A DNA stretch of 43,796 nt, taken from the IMG/VR virus record IMGVR_UViG_3300023500_000096, positions 1 through 43,796 of that record; one strand, written 5' to 3'. The notes under the pieces were generated by a model. It saw only the letters and a program-made list of their open reading frames with translations, was not told where the DNA came from and searched no databases. How positions within the stretch are numbered: position 1 is the stretch's first letter; each line of letters opens with the position of its first letter. The translations under genes were made by a program, and so were the position numbers. Shown here piece after piece: positions 1 to 43,796 of this stretch. The DNA is from a virus.

Positions 1-127
1 TAAAGATCCTAAGATTCGGTTGCGTGCTCCTACCTCTCTCTGTCTTCCGAGATAACCTAGAAGCCCTCTGCGTCCACCACGATCCTAAGATCCTCCCCAA
101 ACTCCGCGACCTACTCGCCACACTCTA
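1..127. repeat. Terminal direct repeat, left copy (assembly circularisation overlap)
   Basis: Bases 1-127 are identical to 43670-43796. An exact odd-length overlap of 127 is the usual maximum k-mer of de Bruijn graph assemblers, so this is best read as the join of a circular contig rather than a biological terminal repeat. Removing one copy leaves about 43,669 bp. A T7-like phage has linear ends with direct repeats, which assemble as circles, so the true physical ends lie elsewhere. Confidence 0.9.
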
Positions 128-128
128 A
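1..128 (+). CDS. Hexapeptide-repeat paralogue H, C-terminal fragment (gene split by the window ends)
   Basis: This is the last 41 codons plus TAA of the hexapeptide gene that begins at 43027. Position 1 is the second base of a codon; whole codons run from base 3. It encodes the end of the conserved C-terminal domain (KILRFGCVLLPLSVF, then an Asp-Asn-Leu-Glu-Ala-Leu-Cys stretch and a final LLATL). Joined across the circle the protein has 256 residues. The stop codon overlaps TAACCCAACG, a decamer core that recurs after almost every paralogue. Confidence 0.85.
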   Translation, partial: KILRFGCVLLPLSVFRDNLEALCVHHDPKILPKLRDLLATL

Positions 129-180
129 CCCAACGGCTGCAACACTGTGGCTCTGCCCTCAACCTACTAAAGGAGATACC

Positions 181-843
181 ATGAAAACTAACAAAGAACG
201 ATTCCCGGACTCTGAGATCGGCGTGGGCTCTGTGATCGGCGTGGGCTCTGATATCGGCGCTGGCTCTGTGCTCGGCGCGTACTCTAGGATCGACGCGTAC
301 TCTGAGATCGGCGCGGGCTCTGTGCTCGGCGCGCACTCTTTGATCGGCGCGGACTCTGAGATCTGCGTGAACTCTGAGATCGGAGCGTACTCTACGATCG
401 GCGCGCACTCTGAGATCGGCGCGTACTCTAGGATCGGCACGCGCTCTGTGATTGGCGATAACTCTATGATCGGCGCGGGCTCTGTGATCGGCGCGGACTC
501 TATGATATGGGAAAAATCTGTGATCGGCGTGAACTCTGAGATCGGCGCGGGCTCTAAGATCGGCGCGTACTCTTGGATCGGCGCGGGCTCTAAGATCGGC
601 GCGGGCTCTAAGCTCGGCGCGGACTCTACGATCGACACGTACTCTGTGATCGAGGCGTATCACTTGGGCAGGTACACGTGGAACCTATACGATGACTTGA
701 GGAGTAGGGTACCTGTAAAGATCCTAAGATTCGGTTGCGTGATCCTACCTCTCTCTGTCTTCCGCGATAACCTAGAAGCCCTCTGCGCCTCCCACGACCC
801 CGAGATCCTCCCCAAACTCCGCTACCTACTCGCCACACTATAG
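181..843 (+). CDS. Hexapeptide-repeat (left-handed beta-helix) early protein, paralogue A
   Basis: A 220-residue protein. Residues 1-12 are the family leader MKTNKERFPDSE, residues 13-156 are 24 hexapeptides of the form I-G-x-x-S-x, and residues 157-220 are the conserved C-terminal domain. The hexapeptide consensus ([LIV]-G-x-x-[ST]-x) is that of left-handed parallel beta-helices, three hexapeptides per coil, so 24 units predict 8 coils. No acyltransferase catalytic His or substrate-binding loop is visible, so an enzymatic call is not supported. It has the strongest type of ribosome site in the family (AAAGGAG, 5 bases before ATG). Paralogue H lies upstream across the circle junction and B follows after 37 bases. 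Function unknown; the position matches the T7 early takeover region. Confidence 0.9.
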   Translation: MKTNKERFPDSEIGVGSVIGVGSDIGAGSVLGAYSRIDAYSEIGAGSVLGAHSLIGADSEICVNSEIGAYSTIGAHSEIGAYSRIGTRSVIGDNSMIGAGSVIGADSMIWEKSVIGVNSEIGAGSKIGAYSWIGAGSKIGAGSKLGADSTIDTYSVIEAYHLGRYTWNLYDDLRSRVPVKILRFGCVILPLSVFRDNLEALCASHDPEILPKLRYLLATL

Positions 844-880
844 CCCAACGGCTCTGCCCCCAACCAACTAAGTGAATACC

Positions 881-1579
881 ATGAAAACTAACAAAGAACG
901 ATTTCCAGACTCTGAGATCGGAGCGAACTCTAAGATCGGCCCATGCTCTGTGATCGGCGCGTACTCTATGATTGGCACGAACTCTAAGATCGGCCCATGC
1001 TCTGTGATCGGCGCGTACTCTATGATTGGCACGAACTCTAGGATCGGATCTTATTCCCAGATCGGCGTGGGCTCTAGGATCGGCCCGAACTCTAGGATCG
1101 GCGCGGACTCTGTGATCGGCGCGGGCTCTGTGATCGGCGCGGACTCTGTGATCGTCGCGCGCTCTGTGATTGGCCCGAACTCTAGGATCGGCGCGTACTC
1201 TAGGATCGGCGCGGACTCTGAGATCGGCGCAGGCTCTAAGATCGGCGCGGACTCTGTGCTCGGCGCGAACTCTAAGCTCGGCGCGGACTCTGTGATCGGC
1301 GCGTACTCTTGGATCGGCGCGGGCTCTAAGATCGGCGCGGGCTCTAAGCTCGGCCCGAACTCTGTGATCGACACGTACTCTGTGATCGAAGCGCATCACC
1401 TGAGCAAGTACACGTGGAACCTTTACGATGACCTGCGAAGCGGAGTGCCGGTAAAGATCCTTAGCTTCGGGTGTGTGACCCTACCTCTCTCTGTCTTCCG
1501 CGATAACCTAGAAGCCCTCTGTGCCCACCACAACCCCAAGATCCTCCCCGAACTCCGCGACCTACTCGCCACACTCTAG
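881..1579 (+). CDS. Hexapeptide-repeat early protein, paralogue B
   Basis: A 232-residue member with 26 hexapeptides between the 12-residue leader and the 64-residue C-terminal domain. The reading frame is open from a GTG at 872, but the ATG at 881 matches the start of every other copy and is preferred. The leader before the ATG is AAGTGAATACC, a weak ribosome site compared with copies A, F and G. Hexapeptides 2-4 (IGPCSV, IGAYSM, IGTNSK) are repeated immediately as hexapeptides 5-7, a 54-bp tandem duplication equal to one helix coil. It carries the distinctive IGSYSQ unit, with atypical codons TAT-TCC-CAG, also present in C, E, H and (as IGYYSQ) F. Confidence 0.9.
   Translation: MKTNKERFPDSEIGANSKIGPCSVIGAYSMIGTNSKIGPCSVIGAYSMIGTNSRIGSYSQIGVGSRIGPNSRIGADSVIGAGSVIGADSVIVARSVIGPNSRIGAYSRIGADSEIGAGSKIGADSVLGANSKLGADSVIGAYSWIGAGSKIGAGSKLGPNSVIDTYSVIEAHHLSKYTWNLYDDLRSGVPVKILSFGCVTLPLSVFRDNLEALCAHHNPKILPELRDLLATL
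935..1042 (+). repeat. 54-bp tandem duplication (one beta-helix coil) inside paralogue B
   Basis: Bases 935-988 and 989-1042 encode the same three hexapeptides and appear identical except in the last codon (AAG against AGG). Three hexapeptides equal one turn of a left-handed beta-helix. Paralogue C has this triad once, directly after the leader, so B looks like a C-type gene with a recent one-coil expansion. Confidence 0.85.
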
Positions 1580-1616
1580 CCCAACGGCTCTGCCCCCAAC
1601 CAACTAAGTGAATACC

Positions 1617-2243
1617 ATGAAAACTAACAAAGAACGATTTCCAGACTCTAAGATCGGCCCATGCTCTGTGATCGGCGCGTACTCTATGATTGGCACGAAC
1701 TCTAAGATCGGATCTTATTCCCAGATCGGATCGGGCTCTAGGATCGGCCCGAACTCTAAGATCGGCGCGGACTCTGTGATCGGCGCGGGCTCTGTGATCG
1801 GCGAATACTCTAGGATCGGCGCGCGCTCTGTGATTGGCGCGGGCTCTGTGATCGGCGCGTACTCTAGGATCGGCGCGAACTCTGTGATCGGCGATAACTC
1901 TGTGATCGGCGCGGACTCTGAGATCGGCGCGTACTCTAGGATCGGCGCGGACTCTGTGATCGGCGCGGACTCTAGGATCGGCCAGAACTCTAGGATCGGC
2001 GCGAACTCTAGGCTCGACGCGAACTCTATGGTCGGCGTGTACTCTGTGATCGAGGCGTATCACTTGGGCAGGTACACGTGGAACCTATACGATGACTTGA
2101 GGAGTAGGGTACCTGTAAAGATCCTAAGATTCGGTTGCGTGATCCTGCCTCTCTCTGTCTTCCGCGATAACCTAGAAGCCCTCTGCGCCTCCCACGATCC
2201 TAAGATCCTCCCCGAACTACGCGACCTACTCGCCACACTATAG
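1617..2243 (+). CDS. Hexapeptide-repeat early protein, paralogue C
   Basis: A 208-residue protein with 22 hexapeptides and the standard leader and C-terminal domain. The spacer and ribosome site upstream (1580-1616) are identical to those before B, and the first hexapeptides match B's duplicated triad, so B and C are the closest pair at their 5' ends. Their 3' ends differ: C ends with the SRVPVKILRFGC version shared with A, whereas B has SGVPVKILSFGC shared with E. This points to recombination between copies. An in-frame GTG at 1608 lies three codons upstream of the preferred ATG. Confidence 0.9.
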   Translation: MKTNKERFPDSKIGPCSVIGAYSMIGTNSKIGSYSQIGSGSRIGPNSKIGADSVIGAGSVIGEYSRIGARSVIGAGSVIGAYSRIGANSVIGDNSVIGADSEIGAYSRIGADSVIGADSRIGQNSRIGANSRLDANSMVGVYSVIEAYHLGRYTWNLYDDLRSRVPVKILRFGCVILPLSVFRDNLEALCASHDPKILPELRDLLATL

Positions 2244-2280
2244 CCCAACGACTCTGCCCCCAACCAACTAAGGGAATACC

Positions 2281-2835
2281 ATGAAAACTAACAAAGAACG
2301 ATTTCCAGACTCTGAGATCGGCGTGGGCTCTGAGATCGGCGTGGGCTCTAGGATCTGCGTGGGCTCTAGGATTGGCACGGGCTCTGAGATCGGCGCGGGC
2401 TCTGTGATCGGCGCGTACTCTGAGATCTGCGCCTACTCTGTGATCGGCGCGAACTCTGAGATCGGAGCGTACTCTGAGATCGGCGTGAACTCTGTGATCG
2501 GCGAGGGCTCTGTGCTCGGCGCGTACTCTAAGCTCGGCATGGGCTCTAAGCTCGGCGCGCACTCTGTGATCGGCGCATACTCTGTGATCGGCGCGAACTC
2601 TAAGATCGGTGCATACTCTGTGATCGGAGCGAACTCTAGGATCGAAGTGCATCACTTGGGCAGTCAAACGTGGAACCTATACGATGACTTGAGGAGTGGG
2701 GTACCGGTAAAGATCCTTAGATTCGGTTGCGTGATCCTGCCTCTCTCTGTCTTCCGCGATAACCTAGAACCCCTCTGTGCCCACCACGCCCCAGAGATCC
2801 TCCCCAAACTCCGAACCCTTATCGCCACACTCTAG
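2281..2835 (+). CDS. Hexapeptide-repeat early protein, paralogue D (shortest)
   Basis: A 184-residue protein with 18 hexapeptides, equivalent to exactly six coils, and so the smallest member. Two units begin IC instead of IG and several begin LG; such substitutions keep the inward-facing aliphatic residue. The C-terminal domain is the most divergent of the set (SQTWNLYDD, with an ending of TLIATL instead of DLLATL). The ribosome site is AAGGGAATACC. The tag stop (2833-2835) starts the decamer TAGCCCAACG. Confidence 0.9.
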   Translation: MKTNKERFPDSEIGVGSEIGVGSRICVGSRIGTGSEIGAGSVIGAYSEICAYSVIGANSEIGAYSEIGVNSVIGEGSVLGAYSKLGMGSKLGAHSVIGAYSVIGANSKIGAYSVIGANSRIEVHHLGSQTWNLYDDLRSGVPVKILRFGCVILPLSVFRDNLEPLCAHHAPEILPKLRTLIATL

Positions 2836-2890
2836 CCCAACGGCTGCAACACTGTGGCTCTGTGCTTCAATACCAACTAAGAGAAATACC

Positions 2891-3607
2891 ATGAAAACTA
2901 ACAAAGAACGATTTCCAGACTCTGAGATCGGCGAAGGCGCTAGGATCGGCGCAAACTCTAGGCTCGACGCGGGCTCTAGTATCGGCGCGAACTCTGAGAT
3001 CGGCGCGAACTCTGAGATCGGCGCGAACTCTGAGATCTGCGAGGACTCTAGGATCGGCGAGGACTCTAGGATTGGCGTGAACTCTAAGATCGGCGCGTAC
3101 TCTGTGATCGGCGCGGGCTCTGTGATCGGCGAGGACTCTAGTATCGTCGCAGGCCTTAGGCTCGGCGCGAACTCTTTGATCGGCTCTTATTCCCAGATCG
3201 GCACGGACGCTGTGCTCGGCGTGAACTCTGAGATCGGAGTGAACTCTAAGATTGGCGCGTACTCTAGGATCGGCGCGGACTCTAGGATCGGCGCGGACTC
3301 TGAGATCGGCGTAGGCTCTAGGATCGGCGCGTACTCTAAGATCGGCGCAGGCTCTAGGATCGGCGCAGGCTCTAGGATCGGCGTGAACTCTGTGATCGAC
3401 GCGGGCTCTAATATCGAAGCGCATCACTTGGGCAGGTACATATGGAACCTTTACGATGACCTGCGAAGCGGAGTGCCGGTAAAGATCCTTAGCTTCGGGT
3501 GTGTGACCCTACCTCTCTCTGTCTTCCGCGATAACCTAGAAGCCCTTTGTGATCACCACGACCCCAAGATCCTCCCCGAACTCCGCGACCTACTCGCCAC
3601 ACTCTAA
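2891..3607 (+). CDS. Hexapeptide-repeat early protein, paralogue E
   Basis: A 238-residue protein with 27 hexapeptides (nine coils). The frame is open upstream to 2777, but that extension overlaps the end of D and lacks the family leader, so the ATG at 2891 is chosen. It contains imperfect units not typical of the others (IGEGAR, IVAGLR and IGTDAV, with Ala or Leu in place of Ser), so it may be older or under weaker constraint. The ribosome site is AAGAGAAATACC. Confidence 0.88.
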   Translation: MKTNKERFPDSEIGEGARIGANSRLDAGSSIGANSEIGANSEIGANSEICEDSRIGEDSRIGVNSKIGAYSVIGAGSVIGEDSSIVAGLRLGANSLIGSYSQIGTDAVLGVNSEIGVNSKIGAYSRIGADSRIGADSEIGVGSRIGAYSKIGAGSRIGAGSRIGVNSVIDAGSNIEAHHLGRYIWNLYDDLRSGVPVKILSFGCVTLPLSVFRDNLEALCDHHDPKILPELRDLLATL

Positions 3608-3645
3608 CCCAACGGCTCTGCCCCCAACCAACTAAAGGAGATACC

Positions 3646-4434
3646 ATGAAAACTAACAAAGAACGATTCCTGAACTCTGTGATCGGCGTGAACTCTGATA
3701 TCGGCGTGAACTCTGAGATCGGCGCGAACTCTGTGATCGGCGATAACTCTGTGATCGGCGCGAACTCTGAGATCGGCAAGGTCTCTGTGATCGGCGTGGG
3801 CTCTAGGATCGGCGTAAACTCTGTGATCGGCACGAACTCTAAGATCGGCGCGTACTCTGTGATCGGCGTGGACTCTAGGATCGGCGATAACTCTGTAATT
3901 AGCGCGGACTCTGAGATCGGCGCGGACTCTGAGATCGGCGCGGACTCTGTGATCGGCGTGGGCTCTAGGATCGGCGTGGGCTCTAGGATCGGCGTAAACT
4001 TTGTGATCGGCACGAACTCTAAGATCGGCGCGTACTCTGTGATCGACGCGGGCTCTGTGATCGGCGCAGGCTCTAAGATCGGCGCAGGCTCTAAGATCGG
4101 CGCAGGCTCTAAGATCGGCGAAGGTTCTAGGATCGGCGAAGGCTCTGAGATCGGCTATTATTCCCAGATCGGCGCGAACTCTAGGCTAGGCCAGGACTCT
4201 GTGATCGACGCGAACTCTGTGATCGCCCCGGACTCTGTGATCGAAGCGCATCACATGAGCACGTACACATGGAACCTATACGATGACTTGAGGAGTGGGG
4301 CGTCGGTAAAGATACTTAGATTCGGTTGCGTGATCCTACCTCTCTCTGTATTCCGAGATAACCTAGAAGCCCTATGTGACCACCACGACCACGAGATCCT
4401 TCCCGAACTCCGCGACCTACTCGCCACACTCTAA
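3646..4434 (+). CDS. Hexapeptide-repeat early protein, paralogue F (longest)
   Basis: A 262-residue protein with 31 hexapeptides, the largest member. The leader differs slightly (MKTNKERFLNSV). Units 7-10 (GVGSR, GVNSV, GTNSK, GAYSV cores) recur as units 17-20, so a segment of ten hexapeptides was probably duplicated; one copy has since gained a Phe for the usual Ser. The C-terminal domain carries SGASVKILRFGC. It has a strong AAAGGAG ribosome site. Strictly tandem IGAGSK units (three in a row) suggest slippage or unequal crossing-over. Confidence 0.9.
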   Translation: MKTNKERFLNSVIGVNSDIGVNSEIGANSVIGDNSVIGANSEIGKVSVIGVGSRIGVNSVIGTNSKIGAYSVIGVDSRIGDNSVISADSEIGADSEIGADSVIGVGSRIGVGSRIGVNFVIGTNSKIGAYSVIDAGSVIGAGSKIGAGSKIGAGSKIGEGSRIGEGSEIGYYSQIGANSRLGQDSVIDANSVIAPDSVIEAHHMSTYTWNLYDDLRSGASVKILRFGCVILPLSVFRDNLEALCDHHDHEILPELRDLLATL

Positions 4435-4488
4435 CCCAACGGCTGCAACACTGAGGCTTAGGCTCCAATACCAACTAAAGGAGATACC

Positions 4489-5079
4489 ATGAAAACTAAC
4501 AAAGAACGATTCCCAGACTCTAAGATCGGCGCGAACTCTAAGATCGGCGTGGGCTCTAAGATCGGCGCGAACTCTGTGATCGAAGCGAACTCTGTGATCT
4601 GGGAAAACTCTGTGATCGGCGTAAGCTCTGATATCGGAGCGGGCTCTGTGATCGGCGCAGGCTCTAGGATCGGCGCGGACTCTAGGATCGGCGCGGGCTC
4701 TAAGATCGGACCGAACTCTGAGATCGGCGTGAACTCTGTGATCGAAGCGAACTCTGTGATCTGGGAAAACTCTGTGATCGGCGCGTACTCTGTGATCGGC
4801 GCGGGCTCTAAGATCGGCGCGTACTTTGTGATCGGCGCGGACTCTAGGATCGGCCCGAACTCTGTGATCGGCGCGGACTCTGTGATCGAAGTGCATCACC
4901 TAAGCGGGTACACATGGAACCTTTACGATGACCTGCGAAGCGGAGTGCCGGTAAAGATCCTAAGATTCGGTTGCGTGCTCCTACCTCTCTCTGTCTTCCG
5001 AGATAACCTAGAAGCCCTCTGTGCCCACCACGCCCCCGAGATCCTCCCCGAACTCCGCGACCTACTCGCCACACTCTAA
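4489..5079 (+). CDS. Hexapeptide-repeat early protein, paralogue G (last of the tandem run)
   Basis: A 196-residue protein with 20 hexapeptides. The pair IEANSV-IWENSV occurs twice, ten hexapeptides apart, with near-identical DNA, again showing internal segment duplication. A similar IWEKSV unit is found in A. Ribosome site AAAGGAG. The spacer upstream (4435-4488) ends in the same AGGCTCCAATACC block as the one before paralogue H at 43027. The stop is followed by CCCAAAGTG, so the usual decamer core is lost at the end of the array. Confidence 0.9.
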   Translation: MKTNKERFPDSKIGANSKIGVGSKIGANSVIEANSVIWENSVIGVSSDIGAGSVIGAGSRIGADSRIGAGSKIGPNSEIGVNSVIEANSVIWENSVIGAYSVIGAGSKIGAYFVIGADSRIGPNSVIGADSVIEVHHLSGYTWNLYDDLRSGVPVKILRFGCVLLPLSVFRDNLEALCAHHAPEILPELRDLLATL

Positions 5080-5689: not shown

Positions 5690-6010
5690 ATGTCCAACTG
5701 CAAGACCTGCAAATACTGCCATCACTGTCCCGAGTCCATATCAGACTACTCCCCTGACAATGAACGGTGGCTCATGTCCCCCGAGTACCTACTGACATAT
5801 CGCTGCGCGCATCCCGAGAATCGCAGTAGGGCTTGGGTCTCCCCTGTGACCGCCAAGGTTACGTATAGACCTAAGGGGGCTATGGATATCCGCCCAGTCA
5901 GCGAGGGGCGCCGGGGCTATTGCTACTACCTGAATGACCAGAGCCAATGCGCTCTATACGAACAAGCGGGGGTCGTAGAGATTCCCGATGAATGGCCGGA
6001 GCTATTGTAG
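5690..6010 (+). CDS. Cys-rich small protein, probable metal-binding
   Basis: A 106-residue protein with a Cys cluster at the N terminus (CKTCKYCHHC, residues 4-13) and further Cys at RCAH, GYCYYL and QCALYE. The spacing suggests a structural zinc site. Similar short Cys-rich proteins occur at 7237 (ECKYCG) and 14825 (VDCENF), so the phage carries several such modules. No enzymatic motif is seen. Its end overlaps the longer open frame of the integrase but not the chosen integrase start. Confidence 0.65.
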   Translation: MSNCKTCKYCHHCPESISDYSPDNERWLMSPEYLLTYRCAHPENRSRAWVSPVTAKVTYRPKGAMDIRPVSEGRRGYCYYLNDQSQCALYEQAGVVEIPDEWPELL

Positions 6011-6056
6011 CTCTGGGAGACTAACACTTACCCCCACTACCACAATGAAAGGAACC

Positions 6057-7235
6057 ATGCAAGGTTACTCAGTATCACGCAAAAAGTACAAGCACCAGAA
6101 CGGCACGCTAGCTGAAACGCAGAAGCACTACTGCTTCTTCCGCGACCACACAGGCACGCAGCGCTCCTTCGCAATCGGTCCCCAGTATATCGCCCACAAG
6201 TTCGGGCAGAACATTGTCTACCTAGTCGAGTCTGTCCGCTGGAACGAGACCCCTCCGATTCACACGGATGCTTGGCTACGCAGTCTGCCTACTCCGATCC
6301 TAAAGCGCCTAGATACCCTAGGTCTGTTAGAGACCGCAGCGATCTCAGCGGACTCTCTATTCGTACAAGCTGACGAGTATCGTGAGCACCTACTCTCCCA
6401 CGGTCGTGAGAAGCAGAACTGCATACGAGACATGGGGCGCCTACGAGACGCCTTTGATGCTATGGGTGTCAAGTACATTAGGAGTATGACTCCGCAGGTA
6501 CTCTCTGGGTGGCATAAGTCTATCGCAGACGAGTTAGTCGGGGGAGTCAAGCGAAGCCCCAACACGATCATCAAGTACCTAAGTGTCATGCGAGGCTTCC
6601 TTAGGTGGGTCGAGCCCTCTGGACCTACTTTTACCTTTGTGCCCACAGAGCATCGCACGGCTGCTGAGCCTAGGCGTGCTATTACTCTACTAGAACTCTC
6701 GCATCTCATAGCGTATCTAAGCACTCCTAAAGCTCCTAGTCTCTTTACGTTCCCAGCGTCCTCTAGGTCCCTGCTGTATCGCCTAGCGGCCTCTACAGGT
6801 CTGAGGGTCAAAGAGATCACTAGTCTAACGCGGTCTTCTATGGACTCTAAGGACTCTAGCTTGTTCCTGACGGGTGCACAGACTAAGAATGGTAAGGACT
6901 TCAAGATTTACCTGTCCCGCAGGATGTTCAAAGACCTAGAGAGACTTCCTGAGAACCGTGATGGAACGCTGTTTGGCATCAAGACGACCTACCGGGCTGC
7001 TGATGCTCTCAGGATGGACATGAAGGCTATTGGGGCTGACATGGTTGGTGCGCCCGTGGTGTTTCACTCGTTCCGCTACACGTTCATCTCGAATCTGAAC
7101 AATTCTGACCTGCCTGAGGCTGTGCGTATGAAGATTGCTAGGCACGCTAAGCTGTCTATGAACCTACACTACTCCGACTTCGGGCGTGATGTAATGAAGG
7201 CGTCCTGGAAGGCTTTGGAAGAGGTGGGGGTCTAG
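6057..7235 (+). CDS. int: Tyrosine recombinase / integrase
   Basis: A 392-residue protein from the ATG at 6057, which has AAAGGA just upstream; the frame is open from 5988 but that part overlaps the previous gene. The C-terminal catalytic domain has the tyrosine-recombinase set: Arg250 in TGLRVKEI, Lys277 in QTKNGK, His337 and Arg340 in HSFR, His363 in ARHAKLS, and Tyr372 in HYSDF. Residues about 100-200 look like a core-binding SAM-like domain (RDMGRLRDAFDAMG through FLRWVEP). All catalytic residues are present, so the enzyme may be active. Integrases just ahead of the RNA polymerase gene are known from marine T7-like podophages. No attachment site matching a tRNA end was identified. Confidence 0.92.
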   Translation: MQGYSVSRKKYKHQNGTLAETQKHYCFFRDHTGTQRSFAIGPQYIAHKFGQNIVYLVESVRWNETPPIHTDAWLRSLPTPILKRLDTLGLLETAAISADSLFVQADEYREHLLSHGREKQNCIRDMGRLRDAFDAMGVKYIRSMTPQVLSGWHKSIADELVGGVKRSPNTIIKYLSVMRGFLRWVEPSGPTFTFVPTEHRTAAEPRRAITLLELSHLIAYLSTPKAPSLFTFPASSRSLLYRLAASTGLRVKEITSLTRSSMDSKDSSLFLTGAQTKNGKDFKIYLSRRMFKDLERLPENRDGTLFGIKTTYRAADALRMDMKAIGADMVGAPVVFHSFRYTFISNLNNSDLPEAVRMKIARHAKLSMNLHYSDFGRDVMKASWKALEEVGV

Positions 7236-7236
7236 C

Positions 7237-7377
7237 ATGTTTGCTGTGTGTAATGAATGCAAGTATTGCGGAGTGGGGGCATCTGATAATGATGATTTGG
7301 CTCCAGATGATCTACCTAGACACTGCGTAGAAGTGAACAAGTACGGAGTCTGTCATGAATTTACGAGGAACTCCTAG
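7237..7377 (+). CDS. Small Cys-rich zinc-finger-like protein
   Basis: A 46-residue protein that starts two bases after the integrase stop and overlaps the polymerase GTG by one base. It contains NECKYCGVG, RHCVE and GVCHEF, five Cys plus two His, which suggests one zinc site. The CKYC core resembles the N terminus of the protein at 5690. The tight packing between two clear genes supports it being real. Confidence 0.5.
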   Translation: MFAVCNECKYCGVGASDNDDLAPDDLPRHCVEVNKYGVCHEFTRNS

Positions 7378-9872
7378 TGAGAGAAGCTGAACTAGAGAAG
7401 CTCATGCATGACATGGGCGTAGAGCGTCAGCGTATGCAGGTGGAGAGTAACAGACGTAACCAGCGGGAGAGTCTGGATGCATCTGGTCGATACCTACTGC
7501 GTGAGGCTGTGTCTCGGATGGAGGAGTGGATCGACGATTGGCGCGGGATCTACTCTGGACAGATGAACGCAGGACGGCCCACTGTAGGCGGGGCGGCTGT
7601 AGCGATCCTAGAGGACTTAGAGACTCCTGTGATCGCTTTCATCGCCTGTCAGGCTGTGCTCAACGGAGTCTCACAATCCCGCAGCAGGCAGTCCCTAGCC
7701 TTCGCTATAGGTAAGCGTCTGGAGGAGGAGATCTGCTACCAGATGTTCGCAGAGAGCGATCCAGGTATGTTCGCTGCGATTATCCGTACCCGCACCACCC
7801 GCCACGGACGTCAGAGTTTCCAGAAGAAGCTCAAGGACTGGGCGGATAGGTGCGAGGCTGATAGGGTCGTTTGGGACTTCAAGGCCCGGCTTACTGTGGG
7901 GATCCTCTTGCTGGAGGGTGTCGTGATGCGCACTGGACTGGTGACGGCCACCAAGAAGCGGTACAACAAGCGAGATAAGATATTCATTGACCCGACTGAC
8001 GAGACTATTGAGTGGCTTGAGAAGTCTAACGAGGCCCATGAGGTGCTGTTCCCGTACTACCTCCCCACGTTCATCCCTCCCAATCCCTGGAGAGGTCTAC
8101 AAGGAGGTGGGTACTTCACTAACGAGATCCTTAGGACTCCTCTGGTGCGCCTCAAGTGGAGTAGTGGGGTGTCTGTCAGTGACCTTGAGAGCTACGACTG
8201 GTCCCGGATCGCTGAGGCCACTACGACTCTCCAGAACACTCCGTGGGTCATAAATGATGCTGTGTACGAGACGCTGATCGAGTGCTATTCTAACTCTATC
8301 CCCGTCCCAGGTCTCCCCAGGTTCGAGGACAGGGAGACCCCCAGTAAGCCTGAGACCTTCAAATCCGAGGAGGACGAGGTGGAATACAAAATCGCTTGCG
8401 GGCGTGTTCACGCTAAGAACAAGGCAGACCGTAACGGGCGGTTGCAGATGGCGAGGATGAAGTATGTCGCAGAGAGATACAGGGGTAAGCGGTTCTTCTA
8501 CCCGACTTCTACGGACTCTAGGGGGCGCTACTACCCTATCCCGATGTCGAGTGATCTCCACCCCCAGGGACCTAAGCACTCCCGCAGCCTTCTGAACTTC
8601 GCGGACGCTAAGCCTATCGAGAATCAGGAGCAGTTAGACTGCCTCAAGATCCACGGAGCCAACTGCTGGGGGGAGGACAAGGTAGATCTAGAGTCCCGAC
8701 TTACTTGGGTAGAGGACAACGAGGAGATGATCCTAGGAGTCTTCAATGACCCCCTGTACAACAAGTCCTGGATCGACGCGGACAATCCCGTAGCGTTCCT
8801 TTCGTTCTGTATGGACTGGGGAGCCTTTAGCGAGGGGGGGTGGGGGACCTTATCAGGGACCCCTGTGGTGTCTGATGGTACGAACAACGGACTACAGATT
8901 TACAGCCTGATGCTCAGGGATCCTATTGGGGGTAAGGCGACGAACTGTATTCCGTCTGACGTACCGCAGGACATCTACAGGGATGTTGCTGACATAGCTA
9001 CGGAGTCCCTAAAGCTATGCCTAGACTCTACGGAGATCGTTCGATATAGGTCTGGTAAGCGCGCCGTTACGTTCAAGGTGTCGGACCTAGCCGCGAAGTG
9101 GCTTCTGTTTACTGGTGGCTCTATCCCTAGGACAGCTACCAAGCGCCCTGTTATGACCCTACCCTATGGCCTACGTCTACACTCGGCTCTGAAGTACGTC
9201 GCAGCTTGGTACAGGGAGCACAAGGAGGCCGGTAACGAGAGTCCTTGGGGAGACTCGGACGCCTACCTGCCGTGTACTTGGCTGGGGGCGGTCATCTGGG
9301 ACGCTATCGAGAAGACAGTCAAGCCGGCTAGAGAGGCTATGGGGTGGCTTATGCGCACGGCTAATCTGTTCTCAGATGCGGGGCTACCTATCCGCTGGAC
9401 CTCTCCTAGTGGGTTCACAGTGATCCAGAACTACCCGAACTATGCCAGCCAGCGTATCCGCACCCAGCTTGACGAGACCCTACGCACCGGACCCTCTAGG
9501 GTAGGTATCCGTATCCGTGGTATCGACCCAGGTAGTATGAACAAGGAGAGGATGCGAGATGCCTTCGCCCCTAACTTTATACACTCTCTGGACGCCGCCT
9601 GTACTACGCTGACTATCGAGAAGGCTAGGGCTGCTGGTATCACATCGTTCGCTATGATTCACGATAGCTACGGTACAGTCGCAGCGGACGCCCCTCTGCT
9701 ACAGAGGCTTACTAGGGAGGCGTATGCCGAGGTGTTCTCTGGGAATCTTCTGGAATCCCTTAGAATTGAATTGCAGGATCAGCTACCCTCTGGCATTGTG
9801 ATCCCAGCACCACCAGAACAGGGAGACCTGGATCCTAGTGTGATCCTAGACTCCAATTACTTCTTCAACTAA
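7377..9872 (+). CDS. T7-type single-subunit DNA-dependent RNA polymerase
   Basis: An 831-residue protein (T7 gp1 has 883). Recognisable blocks: DSRGRYYP near residue 380 (T7 DWRGRVY), motif A VVSDGTNNGLQIYSLMLRD with catalytic Asp500, motif B TKRPVMTLPYG with Lys589, Arg590, Tyr597 and Gly598, and motif C AMIHDSYGT with catalytic Asp763. The chain ends in aromatic residues (NYFFN), as T7 polymerase ends in FAFA. It starts with GTG, overlapping the small gene before it. It would transcribe replication and late genes from phage-specific promoters; candidate shared elements lie near 36.2, 38.2 and 40.45 kb. Confidence 0.97.
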   Translation: MREAELEKLMHDMGVERQRMQVESNRRNQRESLDASGRYLLREAVSRMEEWIDDWRGIYSGQMNAGRPTVGGAAVAILEDLETPVIAFIACQAVLNGVSQSRSRQSLAFAIGKRLEEEICYQMFAESDPGMFAAIIRTRTTRHGRQSFQKKLKDWADRCEADRVVWDFKARLTVGILLLEGVVMRTGLVTATKKRYNKRDKIFIDPTDETIEWLEKSNEAHEVLFPYYLPTFIPPNPWRGLQGGGYFTNEILRTPLVRLKWSSGVSVSDLESYDWSRIAEATTTLQNTPWVINDAVYETLIECYSNSIPVPGLPRFEDRETPSKPETFKSEEDEVEYKIACGRVHAKNKADRNGRLQMARMKYVAERYRGKRFFYPTSTDSRGRYYPIPMSSDLHPQGPKHSRSLLNFADAKPIENQEQLDCLKIHGANCWGEDKVDLESRLTWVEDNEEMILGVFNDPLYNKSWIDADNPVAFLSFCMDWGAFSEGGWGTLSGTPVVSDGTNNGLQIYSLMLRDPIGGKATNCIPSDVPQDIYRDVADIATESLKLCLDSTEIVRYRSGKRAVTFKVSDLAAKWLLFTGGSIPRTATKRPVMTLPYGLRLHSALKYVAAWYREHKEAGNESPWGDSDAYLPCTWLGAVIWDAIEKTVKPAREAMGWLMRTANLFSDAGLPIRWTSPSGFTVIQNYPNYASQRIRTQLDETLRTGPSRVGIRIRGIDPGSMNKERMRDAFAPNFIHSLDAACTTLTIEKARAAGITSFAMIHDSYGTVAADAPLLQRLTREAYAEVFSGNLLESLRIELQDQLPSGIVIPAPPEQGDLDPSVILDSNYFFN

Positions 9873-39410: not shown

Positions 39411-39461
39411 AACAGGCCCTAGCGGGTAACAGGCCCTAGCGGGTAACAGGCCCTAGCGGGC
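39411..39461 (+). repeat. Three 17-bp direct repeats (AACAGGCCCTAGCGGGT)
   Basis: Exact units at 39411-39427, 39428-39444 and 39445-39461 (last base C). They follow degenerate relatives (TAGCGGGCAA, CAGTAGGCCG, TATTTGGCCA, TAATAGGCCC; 39361-39400), each 10 bases long. They fill the 166-bp gap 39316-39481 before the next gene. They belong to the same GGCC/GGGC-rich family as the elements at 38.2 and 40.5 kb. Confidence 0.8.
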
Positions 39462-40880: not shown

Positions 40881-41070
40881 ACCCGCAATAGCCCAACGTA
40901 GCCCACTGCAGCCCAACGTAGCCCACTGCAGCCCAACGTAGCCCACTGCAGCCCAACGTGACCCAACGTGACCCAACGTGACCCAACGTGACCCAACGTG
41001 ACCCAACGTGCCCCAACGTAGCCCGCAATAGCCCAACGTAGCCCAACGTAGCCCGCAATAGCCCAACGTG
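40881..41070 (+). repeat. 19 tandem decamers, 10-bp period ([AGC]CCC-AACGT or variants)
   Basis: Exactly 19 consecutive units of 10 bases without slippage. Types: GCCCAACGTA/G (8 units), ACCCAACGTG (5), GCCCACTGCA (3), GCCCGCAATA (2) and ACCCGCAATA (1, first unit), with one CCCCAACGTA replacing a G-type unit, so counts overlap slightly at the variants. All begin with xCCC. A 10-bp period places each unit on the same face of DNA. The complementary strand is open in all frames only because of the repeat. TAGCCCAACG from this array also occurs at the stop codons of hexapeptide genes. Likely a protein-binding array: origin, packaging site or transcription control. Confidence 0.9.
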
Positions 41071-42152: not shown

Positions 42153-42184
42153 ACTCCAGTAGAGGACACTCCCGTCCCATAACG

Positions 42185-42223
42185 CCTACCAAAAGAGCCT
42201 ACCAAAAGAGCCTACCAAAAGAG
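42185..42223 (+). repeat. Three 13-bp direct repeats (CCTACCAAAAGAG) ahead of a start codon
   Basis: Units at 42185-42197, 42198-42210 and 42211-42223, then CCTACT-ATG. The ribosome-site-like AAAAGAG is therefore present three times, the last nine bases from the start codon. Multiplied sites could raise ribosome loading or permit slippage-based changes in spacing. Confidence 0.8.
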
Positions 42224-42229
42224 CCTACT

Positions 42230-43026: not shown

Positions 43027-43796
43027 ATGAAAACTAGTAAAGAACGATTTCCAGACTCTGAGATCGGCGAAGGCGCTAGGATCGGCGTGGGCTCTAAGCT
43101 CGGCGCGTACTCTAGGATCGGCACGGGCTCTGAGATCGGCGCGGGCTCTGTGATCGGCGCGTACTCTGAGATCTGCGCGTACTCTGAGATCGGCGTGAAC
43201 TCTGAGATCGGCGTGAACTCTGAGATCGGCGCGGGCTCTGAGATCGGCGCTTGCTCTAGGATCGGCGCTGAATCTAGGCTCGACGCGTACTCTAAGATCG
43301 GAGCAGAATCTAGGCTCGAAGTGGGCTCTAAGATCGGCGCGTACTCTAAGATCGGTGCGTACTCTAAGATCGGCGCAGAATCTAGGCTCGAAGAGGGCTC
43401 TGAGATCGGCGCGAACTCTTTGATCGGCTCTTATTCCCAGATCGGCGCGAACTCTACGATCGGCGCGGACTCTAAGATCGGCATGGGCTCTAATATCTGC
43501 GCCTACTCTGTGATCGGCATGGGCTCTAAGATCGGCATGGGCTCTGTGATCGGCATGGGCTCTGTGATCGAAGCGGGCTCTGTGATCGAAGCGGGCTCTA
43601 AGATCGAATCGCATCTCCTGGGCAGGTACGTATGGAACCTTTACGATGACCTGCGAAGCGGAGTGCCGGTAAAGATCCTAAGATTCGGTTGCGTGCTCCT
43701 ACCTCTCTCTGTCTTCCGAGATAACCTAGAAGCCCTCTGCGTCCACCACGATCCTAAGATCCTCCCCAAACTCCGCGACCTACTCGCCACACTCTA
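43027..43796 (+). CDS. Hexapeptide-repeat early protein, paralogue H (first of the array; 3' end at window start)
   Basis: Leader MKTSKERFPDSE, 30 hexapeptides (ten coils) and the C-terminal domain; 256 residues once the stop is completed across the circle junction. Distinctive units include IGAESR, IGMGSK and LEEGSE, giving more Glu than in the other copies. It carries IGSYSQ as unit 21. The ribosome site is AAGGGAATACC as in D. It starts just after the strong terminator at 42941, so it is the first gene of the eight-gene run. Confidence 0.9.
   Translation, partial: MKTSKERFPDSEIGEGARIGVGSKLGAYSRIGTGSEIGAGSVIGAYSEICAYSEIGVNSEIGVNSEIGAGSEIGACSRIGAESRLDAYSKIGAESRLEVGSKIGAYSKIGAYSKIGAESRLEEGSEIGANSLIGSYSQIGANSTIGADSKIGMGSNICAYSVIGMGSKIGMGSVIGMGSVIEAGSVIEAGSKIESHLLGRYVWNLYDDLRSGVPVKILRFGCVLLPLSVFRDNLEALCVHHDPKILPKLRDLLATL
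43670..43796. repeat. Terminal direct repeat, right copy
   Basis: Identical to bases 1-127, inside the C-terminal domain of paralogue H. This is the closing overlap of the circular assembly. Because the paralogues share this domain, a mis-join between two copies should be considered, but reads VHHDPKILPKLRDLL are the same on both ends and fit a single gene. Confidence 0.9.

What the first reader, a model, noticed from the sequence alone, without database searches (positions are those of the whole stretch)
1..5079. Eight tandem hexapeptide-repeat paralogues occupy the early region of a T7-like phage
Seven complete genes here plus one across the circle junction (43027) share a 12-residue leader, 18-31 hexapeptides and a 64-residue C-terminal domain. 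Together they take about 5.8 kb, some 13 percent of the genome. The hexapeptide form is that of left-handed beta-helices, but nothing points to an acyltransferase. In T7 this place holds host-takeover and anti-defence proteins such as the DNA mimic Ocr, so a family of rod-like early proteins with varied surfaces could be inhibitors or decoys with different targets. I know of no described phage system with this layout; the function is inference.
Basis: partly seen in the sequence, partly recalled or inferred. Interest (0 to 1): 0.92.

Follow-up and report, generated by a model that had tools for sequence, protein, structure and literature searches.

The report
Eight tandem variable-surface phage rod proteins
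This virus of bacteria carries eight back-to-back versions of a rod-shaped protein whose two ends stay constant while the exposed surface of the rod is reshuffled, an extreme form of a widespread but uncharacterised phage gene family that probably grips changing targets in the bacterial host.

Summary
Eight intact genes (43027 through the circle junction to 5079; 5.7 kb, 13% of a 43.7-kb T7-like phage) encode an 11-residue leader, 18-31 hexapeptides (xIGAxS) and a 64-residue C-domain. Within the repeats, core codons are nearly invariant even at silent sites. The two outward positions are near-saturated for amino-acid change (pN 0.51, pS 0.07). The C-domain is under purifying selection (dN/dS 0.24).
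The C-domain is an orphan by sequence, but its predicted fold matches a cap domain found on many phage beta-solenoid proteins (pentapeptide, hexapeptide, YdcK-like). These are usually one per genome and often lie beside early recombination or anti-restriction genes. In an enteric branch, 52 of 52 intact genes have different solenoids, including genes with identical cap DNA. Constant ends with a hypervariable rod is therefore a family property that I found described nowhere; this window is an eight-copy tandem version.
Best explanation: early binders whose surfaces diversify against host or defence proteins (inferred, about 0.45). Rivals: neutral repeat turnover, DNA mimicry (disfavoured by charge), polymer scaffold, acyltransferase (rejected). 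Handedness of the helix is unsettled; cap homology rests on structure, not sequence.

The parts
43027..43796 (+). Copy 8 (256 aa, 30 hexapeptides), runs across the circle junction; its last codons and stop are at 1-128 of the window
   Evidence: bases 1-127 are identical to 43670-43796
1..128 (+). 3' end (C-domain and stop) of copy 8 after the junction
181..843 (+). Copy 1: leader, 24 hexapeptides, C-domain (220 aa)
881..1579 (+). Copy 2: 26 hexapeptides (232 aa)
   Evidence: ATG at 881, not the GTG at 872
1617..2243 (+). Copy 3: 22 hexapeptides (208 aa)
   Evidence: ATG at 1617, not the GTG at 1608
2281..2835 (+). Copy 4: 18 hexapeptides (184 aa)
2891..3607 (+). Copy 5: 27 hexapeptides (238 aa)
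   Evidence: from 3099 on also in L001
3646..4434 (+). Copy 6: 31 hexapeptides (262 aa)
   Evidence: identical in L001
4489..5079 (+). Copy 7: 20 hexapeptides (196 aa)
   Evidence: identical in L001; AF2 model
4885..5076 (+). C-terminal cap domain of copy 7 (equivalents: 649-840, 1385-1576, 2049-2240, 2641-2832, 3413-3604, 4240-4431, 43603-43794): beta strands with an FGC motif, then helices
   Evidence: fold matches caps of phage solenoid proteins; dN/dS 0.24
844..880 (+). Example of the conserved spacer between copies (about 37-55 bp each)
   Evidence: (upstream sequences), family D15 (155-nt repeat, 8 copies)
5988..7235 (+). Context: tyrosine recombinase (integrase)
7377..9872 (+). Context: T7-type single-subunit RNA polymerase, which places the array in the early position

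Best explanation
The array is a repertoire of eight paralogous phage proteins with constant ends and a variable rod. Each is a short leader, a beta-solenoid rod of hexapeptides, and a conserved C-terminal cap. The cap is kept by purifying selection. The rod's outward residues and repeat number are changed by point substitution and by gain, loss and shuffling of 18-bp units. The proteins are probably made early in infection. The variable face probably binds host proteins, most likely defence or takeover targets that themselves vary, while the cap gives a common function such as oligomerisation or docking to one partner. Shown by sequence analysis: architecture, rod-like predicted fold, selection pattern, hypervariability in relatives, position before the RNA polymerase gene. 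Inferred: early expression, binding, and host or defence targets.
For: (1) Exposed unit codons have pN 0.51 and pS 0.07, core codons 0.086 and 0.124. The excess holds in each gene alone (exposed pN 0.48-0.56, pS 0.00-0.16), after removing duplicate units, and in a bootstrap (exposed pN/pS 2.5-97.5% range 3.5-34). If silent choices followed genome usage, exposed pS would be 0.70. (2) C-domain dN/dS 0.24, with dN below dS in 28 of 28 pairs. (3) The cap alone (pLDDT 82.5) matches phage hexapeptide, pentapeptide and 'polymer-forming' proteins, TM 0.71-0.73 and probability 0.91-0.95 for the named ones. (4) In P22-like relatives the leader is nearly constant and the last 225 nt differ by 0-2 nt while the solenoids differ completely. 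52 of 52 intact IMG/VR genes have distinct solenoids of 4-40 units, and 0 of 28 pairs with cap DNA at least 99.5% identical share a solenoid. Phages L and ST64T are over 99.9% identical, yet one of two cited differences is loss of one 15-bp unit of this gene (PMC8022706). (5) Relatives lie beside ral, gene 17, sieB, kil, erf and abc, Gam/Rad52/Nin, exonuclease/recombinase, erf/SSB.
Against: No function is known for any member found here, and no target is identified. All E-values of the cap fold search are above 0.1, and sequence comparison of the caps is not significant (hhalign E 0.043). Repeat arrays can turn over without selection. Not all relatives sit in early regions: Thanatos-1 has one among baseplate genes. 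There is no expression evidence. The host of this phage is unknown.
Confidence: 0.45

Rival explanations
1. Neutral repeat turnover: the rod is only a spacer whose fold must be kept, and length and surface drift because 15-18 bp tandem repeats are unstable.
For: Repeat number varies widely in relatives (4-40 units); one-unit loss between near-identical phages L and ST64T (PMC8022706); repeated DNA is strongly homogenised.
Against: Neutral drift at exposed codons should change silent and replacement sites alike; pN is about seven times pS there, and well above it in every copy. All eight copies are intact and their caps are under purifying selection. Shuffling of a few founder units could inflate the ratio in relatives with few unit types, but the window has 125 distinct DNA units among 198.
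Confidence: 0.22
2. DNA mimic or topoisomerase inhibitor, like Ocr, MfpA or Qnr: the rod imitates DNA and blocks DNA-binding host enzymes.
For: Early-type position; pentapeptide members of the same architecture resemble MfpA and Qnr solenoids; PDB comparison includes MfpA and Qnr (Z 9-10).
Against: Net charge -9 to +4 with abundant Lys/Arg on the exposed position; a DNA mimic would not need eight different surfaces.
Confidence: 0.1
3. Polymer or scaffold: the rods stack into filaments, as bactofilins do, and organise something in the infected cell.
For: Best solved match of the model is the T. thermophilus bactofilin filament, Z 12.1, rmsd 1.9 over 101 residues; some relatives match Pfam Bactofilin.
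Against: Z near 12 is within reach of any repeat solenoid; a polymer needs conserved contact faces, whereas the exposed positions are the variable ones.
Confidence: 0.12
4. Virion part or receptor-binding or adhesive protein.
For: Variable surface residues; one relative lies among baseplate genes.
Against: The array is far from the structural module and upstream of the RNA polymerase gene; several relatives examined sit among early or accessory genes.
Confidence: 0.06
5. Acyltransferase, as the hexapeptide annotation would suggest.
For: Pfam Hexapep match.
Against: No NCBIfam enzyme cut-off reached (for example 90 of 160.8 bits, 67 of 207); histidine almost absent from the repeats (0-2 per gene); no inserted loops in the repeats.
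Confidence: 0.02

Closest known systems
Orf-232 of Salmonella phage ST64T / orf19 of ST104 and P22-like relatives (annotated pentapeptide repeat protein; function unknown)
   Same: Leader, solenoid of short repeats, C-terminal cap with GC motif; constant ends and hypervariable solenoid; early operon
   Different: Pentapeptide instead of hexapeptide solenoid; one copy per genome; cap not alignable with significance by sequence
IMG/VR 3300017766_001405 protein (L056:3327-3998)
   Same: The same xIGAxS hexapeptide type, followed by a cap of the GCxxH type
   Different: No second copy seen in the fetched stretch, few repeat letters, different phage; cap sequence not significantly similar
YdcK-type (PF18836) / hexapeptide phage proteins such as phiRM10 gp34, phiAGATE, Bp8p-T, Motura
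   Same: Solenoid plus cap; Motura, phiAGATE and Bp8p-T match the window cap by fold
   Different: They have a longer, different N-terminal part and one place per record
Pentapeptide repeat proteins MfpA/Qnr
   Same: Beta-solenoid rods
   Different: DNA-mimicking gyrase binders (PMC10886550); not hexapeptide, not arrayed, no match by sequence
T7 Ocr
   Same: Comparable early position, proposed anti-defence role
   Different: Acidic DNA mimic of unrelated fold (established knowledge); the window proteins are near neutral
Bacterial hexapeptide acyltransferases (LpxA, LpxD, NeuD)
   Same: Hexapeptide motif (PF00132)
   Different: No enzyme model reaches its cut-off; no conserved catalytic histidine

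Membership tests
Phage beta-solenoid proteins with GC cap (ST64T orf-232 type; not yet a named family) | Solenoid of short repeats with near-invariant core codons and varying exposed codons | tested here: met
Phage beta-solenoid proteins with GC cap (ST64T orf-232 type; not yet a named family) | C-terminal cap of the same fold | tested here: met
   Cap model alone matches such proteins, TM 0.71-0.73, probability 0.91-0.95 for the named ones, though E > 0.1; ranges in the targets were not shown
Phage beta-solenoid proteins with GC cap (ST64T orf-232 type; not yet a named family) | Cap recognisable by sequence | tested here: inconclusive
   GC and following aromatic residue align, hhalign E 0.043, 3 of 150 column shuffles as good with one profile and 17 of 150 with another
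Phage beta-solenoid proteins with GC cap (ST64T orf-232 type; not yet a named family) | Constant ends with hypervariable solenoid | tested here: met
   Among the eight copies; in relatives 52 of 52 distinct
Phage beta-solenoid proteins with GC cap (ST64T orf-232 type; not yet a named family) | Usual copy number, one per genome (usual, not defining) | tested here: not met
   Eight here; one place per record in 66, 160 and 42 phage records; 1 of 134 fetched loci has a second copy nearby
Left-handed hexapeptide beta-helix (PF00132) | Hexapeptide motif above the Pfam cut-off | tested here: met
   90-112 bits against 27
Left-handed hexapeptide beta-helix (PF00132) | Left-handed helix in the structure | tested here: inconclusive
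   Model matches bactofilin best (Z 12.1) and also CcmM/CcmN and serine acetyltransferase helices; handedness not read from coordinates
Hexapeptide acyltransferases | Enzyme model cut-off and catalytic histidine | tested here: not met
DNA-mimic inhibitors (Ocr, MfpA) | Strongly acidic surface | tested here: not met
   Net charge -9 to +4
Diversity-generating retroelement targets | Reverse transcriptase in the same genome | tested here: not met
   No RVT_1 match
Anti-defence proteins | Shown inhibition of a defence system | not testable with these tools
   -

The most novel reading that the evidence does not exclude
Phages carry a widespread, undescribed class of early 'variable rod, constant cap' binders whose exposed surface is continually diversified against host factors, a protein repertoire on the phage side of the arms race, and this genome has expanded it into a tandem repertoire of eight specificities.
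Probability: 0.35. Interest if true: 0.92.

Novelty: new variant of a known kind. Interest (0 to 1): 0.75.

Why it matters
Genes annotated only as 'pentapeptide' or 'hexapeptide repeat' proteins turn out to share a constant cap and a rod that, in the branch examined, differs in every phage, even when the cap DNA is identical. That is the pattern of a molecule under pressure to change what it binds. P22-like phages make the question testable in well-known laboratory systems, and the eight-copy array shows that one phage can keep many versions at once. If the targets are defence proteins, the rods would be a guide to them.

Tried and rejected
Direct homologues of the C-domain by blast or HMM: none in viral contigs beyond the same phage, genome contigs, phages, PDB, PHROGs or Pfam. 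Foldseek of the full model in BFVD or PDB gave only low-TM matches; the cap had to be folded alone. Cap-to-cap sequence homology was not significant with any profile tried. Diversity-generating retroelement: no reverse transcriptase. tRNA or Rfam element: none. Three-faced specialisation of the rod: no significant lag-3 periodicity. Promoters inside the array: none above chance. Defence-family models: none. Relatives of this phage by RNA polymerase or terminase: none with the array in the stretches fetched, apart from the same phage. The cap model resembles human PURA repeats (Z 5.8, 60 residues, rmsd 2.5), too weak to claim nucleic-acid binding. DNA search for the same repeats in bacterial genomes: none. 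Literature: nothing found on hypervariability of these genes, only the one-repeat difference between L and ST64T.
Full report
WHAT IS THERE. The window is a circular contig with a 127-nt exact end overlap, so the circle is 43,669 bp. Eight genes on the + strand run from 43027 through the junction to 5079, separated by short conserved spacers. Each encodes the leader MKTNKERFPDS (minor variants), 18 to 31 hexapeptides of the form x-I-G-A-x-S, and a 64-residue C-domain. None of 198 units carries a stop. A second IMG/VR contig repeats the region from 3099 onward at 100% identity, so copies 6 and 7 and part of copy 5 are present in a second record. The gene order is that of a T7-like phage: integrase at 5988, RNA polymerase at 7377 (at best 34% identical to the listed phage records), SSB, primase-helicase, exonuclease, portal, capsid, tail, internal proteins, terminase. 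The array thus lies in the early position, between the terminase end and the polymerase gene. Early expression itself is inferred.

HOW THE REPEATS VARY. The unit has a fixed skeleton, and it is fixed in DNA too: ATC for Ile, GGC for Gly, TCT for Ser in over 90% of cases, although elsewhere in this genome GGC is 22% of Gly codons and TCT 30% of Ser codons. The two positions that should point outward in this motif (by the known geometry of hexapeptide helices) hold mainly V/R/E/K and G/N/Y/D, with 12 and 11 residues in all, written almost always NNG and NNC. Replacement differences there are 0.51 per site and silent ones 0.07. In the core the figures are 0.086 and 0.124. The excess is seen in each of the eight genes on its own and after removal of duplicate units; had silent sites reached genome usage, exposed pS would be about 0.70. 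The units are therefore closely related in DNA but nearly saturated in exposed residues. The C-domain behaves in the opposite way: dN/dS 0.24, dN below dS in all 28 pairs. Founder effects and unit shuffling can inflate a within-array pN/pS, so this is strong but not formal proof of positive selection.

FOLD. AlphaFold2 on the eight-sequence alignment gives a confident solenoid (pLDDT above 90 over much of it) and a poor cap in the whole protein. The cap folded alone reaches pLDDT 82.5: four strands, then helices. The solenoid's best solved match is bactofilin, Z 12.1. Since the sequence motif is that of left-handed helices and bactofilin is right-handed (general knowledge), handedness is left open.

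RELATIVES. By sequence search the cap has no relative outside this phage. Two routes led further. First, other phage hexapeptide proteins end in a domain with a GC motif preceded by a strand and followed by an aromatic residue and predicted helices. A probe sequence written by me on that pattern found it in 66 phage records, on hexapeptide, YdcK-type and pentapeptide solenoids alike. A second probe, a real cap from L056, found 160 records. Second, the fold of the window cap alone, searched in the viral structure library, returned such proteins near the top: Motura, phiAGATE, Bp8p-T and several pentapeptide or beta-solenoid proteins, TM about 0.7 and probability about 0.9 for the best named ones. 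Sequence comparison of the caps is suggestive at most. I take the window cap as a divergent member by structure, with sequence membership unproved. L056 supplies a link: the same xIGAxS repeats followed by a GC cap.

THE FAMILY IS HYPERVARIABLE. In P22-like Salmonella phages the gene lies beside ral (anti-restriction), with gene 17 and sieB (superinfection exclusion), kil, erf and abc nearby. Six phages share cap DNA to within 0-2 nt in the last 225 and nearly the same leader, but their solenoids differ in number and surface letters. In IMG/VR, 52 of 52 intact genes have different solenoids with 4 to 40 units; none of 28 pairs with cap DNA at least 99.5% identical share one. Phages L and ST64T, over 99.9% identical over 40 kb, differ at this gene by one 15-bp repeat (PMC8022706). 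In unrelated phages the core codons of the repeats are near-identical while exposed positions switch among a few letters, such as R/W/Q by CGG/TGG/CAG. Caution: pooled silent variation in the hexapeptide set is higher because it mixes phages, IMG/VR is dereplicated, and intact genes were chosen by a simple pattern.

WHAT IS SPECIAL HERE. One place per record is the rule. Of 134 fetched loci carrying the cap, one has a second copy close by, a pentapeptide gene followed by a hexapeptide gene (L152). Eight tandem copies in one genome, with 103 different unit peptides, is the extreme found.

MECHANISM. Most likely these are early-made binders: the cap provides a constant function, the rod a surface that changes quickly. 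The neighbours of relatives (anti-restriction, exclusion, anti-RecBCD, recombination) suggest host defence or takeover targets. Binding and targets are inferred; confidence 0.45. A DNA mimic is unlikely given net charges of -9 to +4. An acyltransferase is rejected. Neutral turnover of unstable repeats is the main rival and is opposed by the codon pattern.

VERDICT. Observation confirmed; interpretation partly supported; a new eight-copy variant of a widespread, uncharacterised kind of phage gene, whose constant-end, variable-rod behaviour I did not find described.

Noticed in passing
40889-41069: Tandem array of a 10-bp unit (CCCAACGTAG and variants), about 18 copies, in a stretch without a long + strand gene between the terminase end and the early genes; could mark the genome ends or an origin.
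   Followed up: no
39411-39460 and 42184-42228: Short perfect tandem repeats of 17 bp (2.9 copies) and 13 bp (3.5 copies).
   Followed up: no
5988-7235: Tyrosine integrase in the early region of a T7-like phage; no tRNA gene or Rfam match in the window that would mark an attachment site.
   Followed up: partly
85-663, 626-1399 and others, minus strand: Long open frames antisense to the repeat arrays, a by-product of the repeat codons; some mimic hexapeptides weakly. Not taken as genes.
   Followed up: partly
L152:1-738 and 932-1546: In another phage, a pentapeptide-solenoid gene and a YdcK-like hexapeptide gene with the same kind of cap lie side by side.
   Followed up: yes
L062:2572-3174: In Vibrio phage 1.139.A parts of the repeat region of such a gene are annotated as CRISPR spacers; repeats of this kind can mislead CRISPR finders.
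   Followed up: no
L091, L094, L098, L101 and others: Many IMG/VR contigs end just upstream of the cap, inside or near the solenoid; short-read assemblies seem to break there, so repeat arrays are probably under-counted.
   Followed up: no
C-domain model med3a8ec10386: The cap model resembles PUR-alpha repeats (Z 5.8, rmsd 2.5 over 60 residues); possibly only a common arrangement.
   Followed up: partly
L043, L046, L047 repeat arrays: Three unrelated phages use the same three letters R/W/Q written CGG/TGG/CAG at the outward position; TGG and CAG are the two products of C-to-T change at the CG step of CGG.
   Followed up: no
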